From assembly GCA_018806985.1 (NCBI GenBank), contig JADANN010000447.1:980583-1044582 (forward strand): a DNA stretch of 64,000 nucleotides, written 5' to 3'. This DNA is from Angiostrongylus vasorum (Eukaryota; Nematoda; Chromadorea; Rhabditida; Metastrongylidae). The notes under the pieces are model-generated. The model had not been told where the DNA came from, searched no databases, and saw only the letters and a list, made by a program, of their open reading frames with translations. The position numbers and the translations under genes are program-made. This document shows positions 45,193 to 49,766 of the stretch, piece after piece (positions within the stretch are counted from its first letter, which is position 1; every line of letters begins with the position of its first letter).

Positions 45193-48100
45193 TCATGGAG
45201 CACAAATATCCGACATTTCTGGCACAAGTGGAGCTGATTTCTTAAGCACCTTATCAATATCAGATCTAACTTCCATGTAAAAACTCTTAATTTGATCAGG
45301 CGTTTTTGTCCCAACAACTTCAGAAACTGCATCAAAGTCTTCTTCGTATCGTAATAGACAACGGAACGCAACCATTCGCTCCTCTTCACTCCACGACTCG
45401 CACCTTTTTATTTTATCGAGTTTCATCGAAAATCCCTCCTCATCTTTCTTGTCGCTGACCGTGAGATACCTATAAGACTCCAATCCATCTGTGAGTCCTT
45501 CGGACCGCTGTGATTTCATGGAGTGTTCAAGACGGATAGCACGAGCACGAACTTCAGCTAACTCACACATCACTGCTTTCATCTCCTCATGACATTTCGT
45601 TTTTGGCATTTCAACAATTTCCATTCCATCAATAACATTCTCGTTATCCGGCACGAATTTTTGATCAACATAACTGGACATTTCAACAAAACTATGCGCT
45701 ATGTCTAGCATGTCACTAGGACACTTTCGCCTCCTCTGACGGATTTCATTTGTTGTGGACAAACAACTACATGGACGATGTTTTCCCAAAAACCTGAAGT
45801 ACGTCCAACACACAAAACATAGTTGCATATCGTCGAGAACGTGCACTTCTCGACATTCTTCGCCACAATTACTGCACACATTTGTCTCATTGTGTTGATC
45901 GTCAGCACAATCGCCATCTTCGGAATCTTCGGCCATTCTAGTGTCTATGAAACTCTTATAGTCGGTGTCTTTCTTAGTATTGTAGTAGAACTGGATAATT
46001 GAAGACATAGATCGATATGGCATCATCTGGCGAATTTTGTCGAATCTTTTTCCAAACATGAGCAATGCTTGCTTAAATAGAGCGCGATCGTCTTCACTCC
46101 ATTCTTCATTGATAGGTCGACGTCTCCTCACCTTCTCTTGAGCAACGTTAAAGTCAAAGTTCGATTTTTGCAGAAGATAAAGTGCCTGTAATAAGGCGAA
46201 ACTAATCTTCGCGCTTATCAACAATCACTTATGGTACGTAATAGTTTACGCTTTGCTAAACCCAATGAAGAAACAACGACAGAAAGAACTTTGTCATGTC
46301 TTAGTTTAACCAGCACCTATAATGATGTAGTTGTCTATTCAAAAGTTTTAAAAGCCAACTGGTTTCAATCATATAACAGATGGGGGGCCCATAGTTTCTA
46401 TCATTAGTTTTTCAAATGAGGACTGTTAATAGTTAGCTACATTAAATTCAATGTTGTCCACCAACATCCTAGCGGTTTAGCATCTCATCGCGACTTGAAG
46501 CTGTTCCTTGCTGCGGCAGCACCTCCCAATCTGAGGAGTCCGACGTTTCCATCCAAAAGCGCAGCTAAGAGTAAACGAGTACAAGATCTATCACCGTTCC
46601 GATACCAAACTAGTCGCATGGTGGCAAATCTCCCTCTGATCCACAAAGGAGGTGACTGTCTGGGGTGGTGACGAGCTGGAGAAGGCATCGCCTATGCTGC
46701 CCTCGGGACTACGGAACAAAACAGTGGCCAAAGCAGTATTTATGGAAATTACACTGGGGCTTGCACAATCAGTGAAAAAAGAGCAATCCAAGCATCCAAG
46801 TATCCAAGTTGTCCGCCAAAATGAGACAGAAAGAAGAACTATGTGACCGACTTCCCATCAGCTAACATCCTCCTATTTAAACGTTGTTTTTTATTGCTTT
46901 AATATCTTATTTTCTGTTCTTTTCTATCAAAGTGTTATAGTATTACTATCAAAATATTATGGTAGAGCATTAAAATTAAGCTAAGAGTATTCTGCCAAAG
47001 TTGGGAATAACTGCAAACAAGTGACTATACAACGAAATAAAAGAAAAAGGATGAGCAACACACGAACAAAAACCTGGTCTTGTGCAAGTCTGTACTTCTC
47101 AGCGGCATATTCACAGTACTGATTAAGACTTATTTCATCAATACCAGCTGGTGGACACCACAACACCTGAAATGCGTTCTACCCAGTGAAAAAGAAACAC
47201 ACCAAGGGAAACATATTTTAACTTATAATTCGCAAAACATAATTTGGATGGCTCATCTTACAACGAACCCGAGCAGGCTGTAGCGCAAAACCCTTCCAAC
47301 TGCAATTTATATTAGGGTTTTCTGTGCAGTCAAAAATGGTGCGTCAAGCCGTTCCCAGTAGGTCCGCACATTCTGCGGACTGCGTGGATGAGAGGATGAT
47401 TTGATATACATCGGCTAGGCTTTCGTAAAGAAATGTAGAAAACTTCTGTATTTGGTTGTCTCTGGCAGGAAATATACTCTTTGCTAAACAATGAAAGTTG
47501 ATTTCAAGGAAATCCCCAACGGAAGTACAGCCTACATCAATACTACGTTCAAAGCAGTCTATTCTTTTAAATAGGAAAATTCCAACCGAATTAAAAACAC
47601 AAATTAGCAGAACAAAGCCCACGTGCTCTCTTTCTCCATTCATCAACTTGTCATCTTGTTCTTTCTGAGGTTCATCCACACGTGCTTGGAAATCATCACC
47701 AACTTGGATTTTTCGGTCGGCACTGCTTAGCATGGCTGAAGAATCACAGTAATGCAAGTGGACACAGTAGTCCTCGTATTCTAAAAAAAGAAAAGAAAAA
47801 AACAGAAAATGTGCCCGCCCCCTGCTCTGGCGTAGCTATACAAAAGTACTTCAATAAGAAGTGTACTGTTTAGTATCATCTAAGACAGTTCTATTTACGA
47901 ATATCACAACTGGCGCTAGATTATCATTATCCCTATAGTGTTATCACGTTCTGTAGCAGTGTGACAACTTTTACCCCGAAAGATTGGGTACTCTGCATTT
48001 TGGAGACGGGTTTGAAGTAACATATTCTCTTATAGATTTTACAACCTTCTATTTAGAATGGACACTCAAATGGAAATTCACCACGCAGGGATTTCATGAA

Positions 48101-49766
48101 CTTCACTAACCTTTGTGATCAACTTCTACATCCTCATCCTTCTCTTCATCTTCGTTATCATCATCTGAGTCATTGCGTTTAGTTCTGGTACGTTTACTAC
48201 GTTTTGTGGTCTTCTAAATATAGGCTTACGAAAGAAACTAAGGAAACGTCAACAAGCACTAAGAATACCGTACCTTTGTGATGACATCCTCGTTCTGTCT
48301 TGACTTTTCTTCAAAATCAGCATTCTGCGCATCGCTTGAATTTTCTTCCTTCAGAACCAAGGTGGAACGGAATGGACTCTGATGACGTTAAAGCTATACA
48401 ATTTCGCAAAGTCGGTAGTATATGTTTGATAATAACCAAAACACACGAACCTAGACTTCATATAAACGAAGACTACTTACAGATGTTTTTAAAAAAACGT
48501 AAAAATTTTCCAATTTTACCCGAGGGAGTTTCCAGGATTAAACACGTGGTCATGTGACACGTGGGCAACGCAGCATGGACCTCAAGCAACTCCGACATAA
48601 AAAATTAATGATTCTTAATCGTTTCTGCTTCTTAATAAATTATATGTTCCTGTATATTCATGATCTACACACGTCCATGAACAGGTGGGTGCCCGGGCTT
48701 GCAGATATGTATTTTCTGTTATTCAGCATTTAACCAAAAGTTTGTTGCTAAGGAGTTCAAGGGCGTGGAAGTCCGACCAGGATATGCTCCAGTAAGTACA
48801 ATTTACCAGGCGCGTGTGGCGCAGTGGTTAGAGGCGCCACTGCGACACACACGTGGAATCTATCCCCGCGCCTATGGTCCACCAAGCCTTCCATCCCTCC
48901 GGGGTCGACAAATTGGTACCACTTGGATAGCGACACTGGGTACTGACACATCGGTAGGCCACCGCGAGTCATTGTAATGGCCAGATTTGCATCCAATCAC
49001 CTCCAACGATACTTAATGAAGTCGAATGCATGGCACATCCCTCAGGGATTGATCAAGGCCGATAGCTTTATCCTTTAATTACAGTTTACGCTCATTTCAA
49101 AACAGTCCGAAGAGCTAACCGTCGATGTACCCAACCTGTGGGAATGAAAAGGAAACCATGAACTGGTTCGTGCCCAAAGTAGTGAAATTAAATGAACTAA
49201 TACCAGATATGCCTCATCTCCTGCTCTACTCATTCAATAGCCAACATATGCCTCATCTCCTGCTCTACTCATTCAATAGCCAACATCTTCAGTACTGAAA
49301 AGAAGACTTTACTGGTGCATCCCCAAGTTACTTAGTAAATAACCGCATTGTAAATTCTTTAGAGGACGTTCCCATTGCATCAACTAATGGACACATTACC
49401 CAGGAATTCCTTGGAACTAGAAAGGAACTTGCATCTCCTACGGTAATTCGCAGTCAAAACGAATATTTCTCTTCACGTTTCATATTTACAGCCGAATCGA
49501 TAAAAGTTTTCAAAGAGTCGAGAGAGTTTAAAGAGTTAAAGAGAGACAGAAAGAGGAAGAAGTTGAAATTGTGAAAACTTTGTAATATTGTAAGCTCACA
49601 GAACACCGATCTGTTGACGTACAGCATCAGAATGTGTATCCGAGTGTGCATCGGACGGGGCGTCGACTTCCATCTCCTCGAGCAAATTTGGTTCGCCGAC
49701 TTCCTTCTCAACAAATGCATGAACTCCACCTTCAGACGTGCATCTTCCCAAACTTCCATGGTCCAT
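45193..49766 (-). CDS. spr-1: CoREST-type corepressor, copy B, with intron-poor 3' half
   Basis: Exons on the minus strand: 49766-49619 (ATG), about 48345-48274, 48213-48111, 47735-47623, 47166-47074 and one long exon 46185-45193 (TGA). The start of exon 2 is uncertain. The N-terminus is acidic (EPNLLEEMEVDAPSD). ELM2 spans exons 4-6 (IQVGDDFQARV; VLWCPPAGIDE; ALYLLQKSNFDFNVA). The long exon carries SANT1 (EEWSEDDRALFKQALLMFG), a Cys-rich insert (CSNCGEEC, CFVC, PCSC), the linker helix (AVMCELAEVRARAIRLE) and SANT2 (SWSEEERMVAFRC, FDAVSEVVGTKT). Exons 47166-47074 and 38713-38621 of copy A are both 93 bp in the same phase. The long exon corresponds to seven exons (5-11) of copy A without any intron; the 60-bp intron at 48214-48273 is absent from copy A. 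No stops or frameshifts, so it is probably functional. The role is as for copy A: a scaffold for an LSD1/HDAC corepressor complex. Confidence 0.92.
46478..46812 (+). repeat. S4 element, sense, in an intron of CoREST copy B
   Basis: Starts at CTAGCGGTTTAGCATCTCATC and ends in a clear tandem tail (ATCCAAGCATCCAAGTATCC, then AAGT). Confidence 0.75.
48809..49076 (+). repeat. S1 SINE, reference-quality sense copy
   Basis: GGCGCGTGTGGCGCAGTGGT head with a matching CCCCGCGCC, body CATCCCTCCGGGGTCGACAA, end GATAGCTTTATCC. It lies in the first intron of CoREST copy B. Confidence 0.85.
49209..49286 (+). repeat. Perfect 39-bp tandem duplication
   Basis: The unit starting ATGCCTCATCTCCTGCTC and ending AGCCAACAT occurs twice without a mismatch (49209-49247 and 49248-49286), in the first intron of CoREST copy B. 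Confidence 0.95.

What the first reader, a model, noticed from the sequence alone, without database searches (positions are those of the whole stretch)
45193..49766. Mosaic intron loss in one of two tandem CoREST genes
Copies A and B share exon sizes and phases over ELM2 (for example the 93-bp exons at 38713-38621 and 47166-47074). From the ALYxLQKSNFDF exon to the stop, B is one 993-bp exon while A has seven exons, so six adjacent introns are missing together. Loss of a contiguous 3' block is the pattern expected when a reverse-transcribed mRNA recombines with its gene. RTE elements, which supply reverse transcriptase, are all around. The alternative, gain of six introns in A, needs more events.
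Basis: partly seen in the sequence, partly recalled or inferred. Interest (0 to 1): 0.75.

Follow-up and report, generated by a model that had tools for sequence, protein, structure and literature searches.

The report
Introns erased from a lungworm gene
In a lungworm, one of two neighbouring copies of a gene-silencing factor has lost six neighbouring introns with base-level precision, most likely because a spliced RNA copy was written back into the chromosome, and broken sister copies elsewhere in the same genome still carry those introns.

Summary
Gene A has seven exons where gene B (window 45193-46185) has one 993-bp exon; the six missing introns are removed to the base. The genome holding the window contains five further, broken copies of B. 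One (C447a) keeps all six introns and the other four keep some, at A's positions. So B lost introns; A did not gain them. B is the only intact copy found. Flanks and upstream introns are shared, so B is not an inserted retrogene; junction microhomology is 0-5 bp. Rewriting from reverse-transcribed spliced RNA is the best explanation.

The losses need not be one event: broken copy C431 lacks the first of the six introns in nearly identical exons but keeps the second. And the template may have been a sister copy's RNA: exons 7-11 of B show no synonymous difference from C447b (141 sites), while non-coding parts differ by 6-9%; tree topology does not confirm this. C431 lost four introns (about 60-210 bp) and kept six longer ones. 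Expression and the reverse transcriptase were not tested. The process is known; this case is unusually well preserved.

The parts
45193..46185 (-). B last exon, 993 bp, fused exons 5-11; both SANT domains; the six intron sites lie at 46024/46023 (s5), 45908/45907 (s6), 45578/45577 (s7), 45470/45469 (s8), 45360/45359 (s9), 45250/45249 (s10)
   Evidence: ORF and splice acceptor; site offsets 162, 278, 608, 716, 826, 936; junctions
47074..47166 (-). B exon 4 of the family numbering (93 bp, ELM2), intron-flanked
47623..47735 (-). B exon 3 (113 bp, start of ELM2)
48111..48213 (-). B exon 2b (103 bp)
48214..48273 (-). 60-bp intron present in B, C378 and C205, absent from A and precisely absent from C431
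48274..48378 (-). B exon 2a (105 bp)
   Evidence: start corrected with relatives' proteins
49623..49766 (-). B exon 1 (144 bp) with start codon
46186..47073 (-). 888-bp intron immediately upstream of the intronless block, kept in B and matched in C431, C447a and C378; B unlike all others at 18 of 886 columns
44543..45192 (-). 3' flank right after the B stop codon; 45/642 differences to C447b where the preceding exons 7-11 have 3/715; B is unlike all other copies at 30 of 642 columns here and at 0 of 993 in the block
26832..38473 (-). A exons 5-11 with six introns (38473-38312, 38223-38102, 32660-32325, 32233-32126, 27495-27386, 27197-27088, 26942-26832)
38621..40584 (-). A exons 1-4 (40584-40426, 39252-39045, 38918-38803, 38713-38621)

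Best explanation
B is an intact CoREST-type corepressor gene (ELM2 plus two SANT domains) next to its older paralogue A. Its ancestor had introns at the six A positions over the 3' half. They were removed when DNA reverse-transcribed from spliced RNA replaced the chromosomal sequence by homologous recombination or break repair, from around exon 5/6 to the stop codon, leaving upstream introns and both flanks in place. Shown: polarity, exactness, the open reading frame, and intron-bearing sister copies in the same genome. Inferred: that the intermediate was cDNA or RNA-templated repair; that at least two steps occurred (site 5 apart from sites 6-10); and, less surely, that the template for exons 7-11 was the RNA of a C447b-like sister copy.
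For: Five B-family loci besides B. Introns kept in the block: C447a all six (63, 846, 93, 210, 1963, 169 bp); C378 sites 5, 6, 9, 10; C447b sites 7-10; C205 sites 9, 10; C431 site 6 and the start of site 9; B none. C378 and C205 also have a gap of about 210 bp at site 8 beside a truncated exon 8. At each of the six sites at least one intron-bearing copy equals B in the 12 bases on both sides. Microhomology between intron ends is 0-5 bp. Upstream flanks match in all five copies and downstream flanks in four of five (C431 ends in intron 9), so the copies are DNA duplicates and B sits in its original frame. Among the whole-genome hits (best candidates only) none is a free-standing spliced retrocopy. 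A and intron-bearing B copies share all six positions, so the introns predate the A/B split; D. viviparus already has a B-group protein. Gene models elsewhere break or read through at site 5 (Heligmosomoides P0013, Teladorsagia P0024), site 6 (Necator, three Ancylostoma species, Nippostrongylus, Oesophagostomum) and site 9 (Oesophagostomum P0022). For a template from a sister copy: B versus C447b over exons 7-11 is 3/715 substitutions and 0 of 141 synonymous sites, against 45/642 just past the stop (Fisher p = 1.8e-4), 33/590 upstream (p = 0.0011) and 6 of 68.5 synonymous sites in the exons 1-4 that C447b has.
Against: The template from a sister copy is not confirmed by topology: in the block tree C447a+C447b stand together with weak support (50/41) and B+C447b is neither favoured nor rejected (p-AU 0.259), while the 3' flank favours C447a+C447b (96/96) and rejects B+C447b (p-AU 0.021); shared-derived sites in the block are split 3 (B+C447b), 2 (C447a+C447b), 1 (B+C447a). 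In exon 9 B differs from C447b by two substitutions and one indel and there resembles C431. C447b lacks exons 4-6, so as it stands it cannot have templated exons 5-6. No RNA evidence, no expression data, no identified reverse transcriptase. Site 5 loss is shared with C431. For other species only proteins were at hand, so their introns are inferred from gene-model faults.
Confidence: 0.83

Rival explanations
1. Gain: six introns were inserted into A and independently or ancestrally into the other B copies, and B keeps the original uninterrupted exon.
For: Of the copies found, B alone is uninterrupted over the whole block; A and B differ by one further intron (60 bp) in the other direction.
Against: A and the B-family copies share all six positions and phases although the A and B groups are old, with D. 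viviparus in the B group; gene models of other nematodes also break at sites 5, 6 and 9; B exons 7-11 are nearly identical to intron-bearing C447b.
Confidence: 0.02
2. B's 3' half is an inserted, 5'-truncated retrocopy (LINE-type) that captured a truncated B gene.
For: Contiguous 3' intronless block, as 5' truncation would give.
Against: The 3' flank past the stop aligns with all four copies that keep it (about 89-93% identical to B), without an inserted stretch at the stop; the block starts exactly at the homologous splice acceptor. Target-site duplications and a tail were not searched for separately.
Confidence: 0.05
3. Genomic deletion of each intron by microhomology-mediated end joining, six independent times.
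For: Proposed for metazoan intron loss (van Schendel and Tijsterman 2013, seen only as a cited reference in PMC12065846).
Against: Microhomology 1, 1, 0, 5, 2, 4 bp at the six sites (part of it is expected from splice-site consensus); six deletions exact and in frame, and four more exact losses in C431.
Confidence: 0.03
4. Same cDNA mechanism, but the template was B's own mRNA; the low divergence from C447b reflects constraint and chance.
For: Topology of the block does not require an outside template; B is the only intact copy found and so the most likely to be transcribed.
Against: 0 of 141 synonymous differences to C447b against 7.0% just past the stop (p = 1.8e-4); B's end branch is 0 in the block and 0.051 in the 3' flank.
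Confidence: 0.35
5. Assembly artefact: a transcript or chimeric reads built into the contig.
For: A multi-copy family with about 84-99% identity is prone to mis-assembly.
Against: Upstream introns and both flanks carry B-specific changes and are continuous; C431, on another contig and carrying its own stop codons, shows separate exact intron losses.
Confidence: 0.05

Closest known systems
cDNA (mRNA)-mediated intron loss in nematodes (Ma et al. 2022, PMC9169325: abstract, Results section on mechanism and Discussion read)
   Same: Exact losses, adjacent introns, 3' position; that study reports 4844 of 5047 Caenorhabditis losses as precise and 828 adjacent pairs.
   Different: Those are comparisons between species; here intron-bearing and intron-less copies of one gene lie in one genome, the others being pseudogenes, so the earlier structure is preserved beside the new one.
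RNA-templated double-strand break repair with whole-intron deletions in human cells and tumours (PMC12065846, passages read)
   Same: Consecutive exact intron deletions explained by a spliced RNA template without an inserted retrocopy.
   Different: Engineered or tumour cells; here in the assembled genome of a nematode. Which polymerase acted is unknown here.
Intron loss in duplicated teleost hatching-enzyme genes (PMC2939575, passages read)
   Same: Multi-copy family with exact losses; that paper names cDNA of mature mRNA or of partially spliced pre-mRNA as template in one of two main models.
   Different: Here loss patterns of two sister copies (a 3' block in B, short introns only in C431) can be compared with less reduced copies in the same genome.
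CoREST / REST corepressor 1 (PDB matches); C. elegans spr-1 and rcor-1 (names recalled; search listing only)
   Same: ELM2 and two SANT/Myb domains in both A and B.
   Different: Orthology to spr-1 or rcor-1 was not tested.

Membership tests
cDNA-mediated intron loss | Introns removed exactly, exons joined without insertion or deletion | tested here: met
   6 of 6 junctions in B, and the 4 lost junctions of C431
cDNA-mediated intron loss | Adjacent introns lost simultaneously | tested here: inconclusive
   Six adjacent introns absent, but C431 shares the first loss and keeps the second intron
cDNA-mediated intron loss | Bias to the 3' end | tested here: met
   The six lost introns are the last 6 of 11 in B; one gene cannot show a bias by itself
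cDNA-mediated intron loss | Short introns preferentially lost | tested here: inconclusive
   Not in B (counterparts of 63 to at least 1529 bp lost, 60 bp kept); yes in C431 (60-211 bp lost, 391 bp and longer kept)
cDNA-mediated intron loss | Gene transcribed in the germ line and reverse transcriptase available | not tested
   No RNA reads at hand; genome-wide PF00078 search unanswered
Processed retrogene | Whole copy intronless at a new genomic site | tested here: not met
   Five upstream introns kept; upstream flank shared with five of five and downstream flank with four of five sister copies
Processed retrogene | Poly(A) tail and target-site duplication | not tested
   Not searched for separately; no inserted stretch between stop and flank in the alignment
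Microhomology-mediated intron deletion | Repeats at intron ends matching the deletion | tested here: not met
   1, 1, 0, 5, 2, 4 bp at the six sites; 5 and 4 bp at s8 and s10 are not nil
CoREST/RCOR corepressor | ELM2 followed by two SANT domains | tested here: met
   Pfam ELM2 above cut-off and two Myb stretches in A and in B; PDB best matches REST corepressor 1
CoREST/RCOR corepressor | Binding to LSD1 and HDAC1 | not testable with these tools
   No assay; feature recalled

The most novel reading that the evidence does not exclude
RNA keeps rewriting this duplicated gene family. One copy (B) had its 3' half overwritten by fully spliced RNA, probably of a sister copy. Another (C431) was overwritten by a partly spliced precursor in which the short introns had already been removed and the long ones had not. 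The family would then record two stages of splicing in its DNA, with RNA-templated gene conversion between paralogues as a continuing process in the lungworm germ line.
Probability: 0.25. Interest if true: 0.72.

Novelty: new member of a known kind. Interest (0 to 1): 0.52.

Why it matters
Whether introns are lost through reverse-transcribed RNA is usually argued from statistics over distant species, and for nematodes earlier studies had pointed the other way (PMC9169325, Discussion). Here the structure before and after lies in one genome, with divergence of only some percent, so tract ends, the likely template and the order of losses can be read. The B family could show directly whether template RNA comes from the same or another copy, and whether unspliced introns can pass through.

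Tried and rejected
Intron gain in A, inserted retrocopy, six microhomology deletions and assembly error were considered and rejected or rated low (see rivals). A single event for all six introns was my first reading; the shared site-5 loss in C431 made me drop it. I first took the near-identity of B and C447b as proof of a template from a sister copy; the pattern counts and the tree test reduced it to 'suggestive'. The donor of B's last intron (gttttt) looked weak, but C431 and C378 have the same donor. My first models began exon 2 too late in both genes and were corrected with relatives' proteins; the searches used the earlier models. One search ended in a script error after printing segment limits and was redone within; the count of changes private to B left out columns with three states and was redone, which found one in exon 4. 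Faults in outside protein models were read as signs of introns: an 11-aa skip in P0002 from site 5 to what in B is the next CAG, a 13-14 aa insert at site 8 in P0004 and P0019, a frameshift in P0013 and a read-through in P0024; they are indirect. In one search rows were cut by motif at the end of the first SANT domain (first tree, 17 rows; P0016-P0018 left out) or before the cysteine-rich motif (second tree, 12 rows); P0019-P0024 came later and are in no tree. The Fisher tests were not corrected for the number of pairs and regions looked at.
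Full report
What is there. On the minus strand of the window lie two CoREST-type genes, B (49766-45193) and, 4.6 kb further on, A (40584-26832). Both encode an ELM2 domain and two SANT/Myb stretches; B's best PDB relatives are REST corepressor 1 chains. A has eleven exons. B has five exons that mirror A's first four (one is split by an extra 60-bp intron) and then a single 993-bp exon that covers A exons 5-11.

Which way. The window is G000:C447:980583-1044582 of a 280-Mb assembly in 468 contigs. Searches of that assembly with B protein and DNA (best candidates only) found B-family sequence at five other main loci, called here C431 (1150467 downwards), C447b (C447, about 721.7-727.2 kb), C447a (C447, about 436-443 kb), C378 and C205, plus an exon-1 piece on C49 and a 3'-end piece on C434. 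Their upstream flanks match the window well beyond the gene in all five, and the downstream flank in four of five; C431 ends in intron 9 and its exons 10-11 were not found. So they are DNA-level duplicates. Intron table, sites named s5-s10 after the exon before them: C447a has all six (63, 846, 93, 210, 1963, 169 bp); C378 has s5 (64), s6 (844), s9 (4687), s10 (166), with exons 7-8 partly deleted; C447b has s7-s10 (90, 211, 1529, 170) with exons 4-6 missing; C205 has s9 (1929) and s10 (169) with exons 5-7 missing; C431 has s6 (824) and the start of s9. Window B has none. At each site at least one intron-bearing copy equals B in the 12 bases on both sides; elsewhere there are point changes, and at s10 my alignment of C447a is shifted by one base. 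A and these copies share all six positions, so the introns were there before the A/B split.

How old the split is. In a tree of the ELM2-SANT1 half (17 rows) the A group (4 rows, 100/99) and the B group (6 rows, 100/100, including Dictyocaulus viviparus, a long branch) are each well supported, A and B together have 89/82, and the single genes of Haemonchus, hookworms and others fall outside both. The tree of the C-terminal half (12 rows) again has A (2 rows, 95/100) and B (5 rows, 100/100) but, against the first, puts Haemonchus and Ostertagia with B (82/88), so where the two groups attach is unsure. Annotated proteins of other nematodes break or run on into intron-like sequence at s5 (P0013, P0024), s6 (P0008, P0009, P0010, P0015, P0017, P0018, P0022, P0023) and s9 (P0022). 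The A. costaricensis B protein skips 11 residues from s5 to what in window B is the next CAG (P0002), as a mis-set acceptor of a still present intron would do; A. cantonensis (P0001) shows no such fault. These are inferences from proteins; no genomic DNA of those species was available.

B is the only intact copy found. Stops, frameshifts or missing exons occur in all five other main copies: C431 has three stops and a one-base insertion, C447b a stop, two frameshifts and no match for exons 2a and 4-6, C447a two stops and a 112-base insertion in exon 7, C378 and C205 frameshifts and deletions. The broken copies therefore serve as fossils of the earlier structure.

Mechanism. Six exact, in-frame removals at the 3' end with flanks and upstream introns in place fit rewriting from spliced RNA. 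Microhomology at the six sites totals 1, 1, 0, 5, 2, 4 bp, which gives no reason to expect exact repeated deletion. There is no sign of an inserted copy: sequence past the stop aligns in register with all four copies that keep it.

One event or more. C431 lacks s5 too, in exons 5-6 that differ from B's by 4 of 278 bases, but it keeps s6 (824 bp) and the start of s9. So s5 was lost apart from the rest, or C431 received a stretch around exons 3-6 from B after B's loss (B and C431 differ by 0 to 4.5% over segments from exon 3 to exon 6, against 6.7 to 9.9% over most segments before them; exon 1 is 2.8% and exon 9 is 1.8%). Exons 7-11 of B are instead closest to C447b.

Whose RNA. B and C447b differ at 3 of 715 bases over exons 7-11 and at 0 of 141 synonymous sites, against 45/642 right after the stop, 33/590 upstream of exon 1, 34/373 in intron e2b|e3, and 6 of 68.5 synonymous sites in the exons 1-4 that C447b has (Fisher p = 1.8e-4 against the 3' flank alone, 0.0011 against the upstream stretch alone, uncorrected). 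Over the whole 993-bp block B is never unlike all other copies (0 of 993 columns), against 30 of 642 after the stop and 18 of 886 in the intron before the block; exon 3 has 0 of 113 and exon 4 has 1 of 93. Constraint on the protein explains part of this, but not the silent sites. The first difference to the other copies lies at the fourth base past the stop. Control pairs show no such deficit: C447a-C447b 6/141 synonymous against 17/647 (p = 0.28), B-C447a 6/141 against 48/645 (p = 0.20). Against this: the block tree puts C447a with C447b, weakly (50/41), and B+C447b is not favoured (p-AU 0.259), though the 3' flank rejects B+C447b (0.021); the shared-derived sites are 3, 2 and 1 for the three pairings; and in exon 9 B differs from C447b by two substitutions and an indel. 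I rate a template from a sister copy as somewhat more likely than B's own RNA, not as shown.

C431. It lost the 60-bp intron in exon 2, s5, s7 and s8 (60-211 bp in the copies that keep them) and kept introns of 1214, 391, 456, 888 and 824 bp and s9, of which only the start is left. That is 4 of 4 short and 0 of 6 long (my arithmetic: 1 in 210 if four of ten fell at random; noticed after the fact; s10 could not be judged). A partly spliced template, or repair that tolerates only short loops, would give this; so would several separate losses. Partly spliced pre-mRNA as template is already in print (PMC2939575, passage read).

Known context. For nematodes, a study of 104 genomes supports cDNA-mediated loss in Caenorhabditis (PMC9169325: abstract, mechanism section and Discussion read). 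Consecutive exact intron deletions by RNA-templated repair are reported in human cells and tumours (PMC12065846, passages read). A search for papers holding intron, CoREST and Angiostrongylus together found none; by title and start of abstract, the listings show no paper on this case.

Noticed in passing
window 36327-36825, + strand: Pieces of a protein-tyrosine phosphatase (PF00102, E 2e-12 for 36595-36825; a weaker match below cut-off for 36327-36551) lie inside A's 5.4-kb sixth intron on the opposite strand: a nested gene or its remains.
   Followed up: partly
window 48273-48214: A 60-bp intron present in B, C378 and C205 is absent from A; whether A lost it or the B group gained it is open.
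   Followed up: partly
L009, C431:1145308-1150467: A broken B copy that lost four short introns exactly and kept the six longer ones that can be judged.
   Followed up: yes
window 38802: A exon 3 ends in a GC donor (gcgagt), not GT.
   Followed up: no
window 49982-56536: The stretch upstream of B is 98.75% identical to C378 over 6.6 kb, far closer than the gene itself (about 87%), and the identity breaks at 49982: a separate recent exchange between copies.
   Followed up: no
exon 9 of C447a, C447b, C378, C205: All four carry extra base(s) in exon 9 relative to B and C431 (one in three of them, two in C378); in C447b it is one A in an A-run. A shared frameshift, a repeated homopolymer change, or an error.
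   Followed up: no
P0007 (A. costaricensis), P0019 (D. viviparus): Second, apparently broken or partial B-like copies exist in other lungworms too, so B may be prone to duplication.
   Followed up: no
window 29478-29993, 60651-61154, 58299-58517, 6289-6773: Related decayed repeat pieces resembling (from recall) the end of an RTE-type element; the tested piece has no Pfam match.
   Followed up: partly
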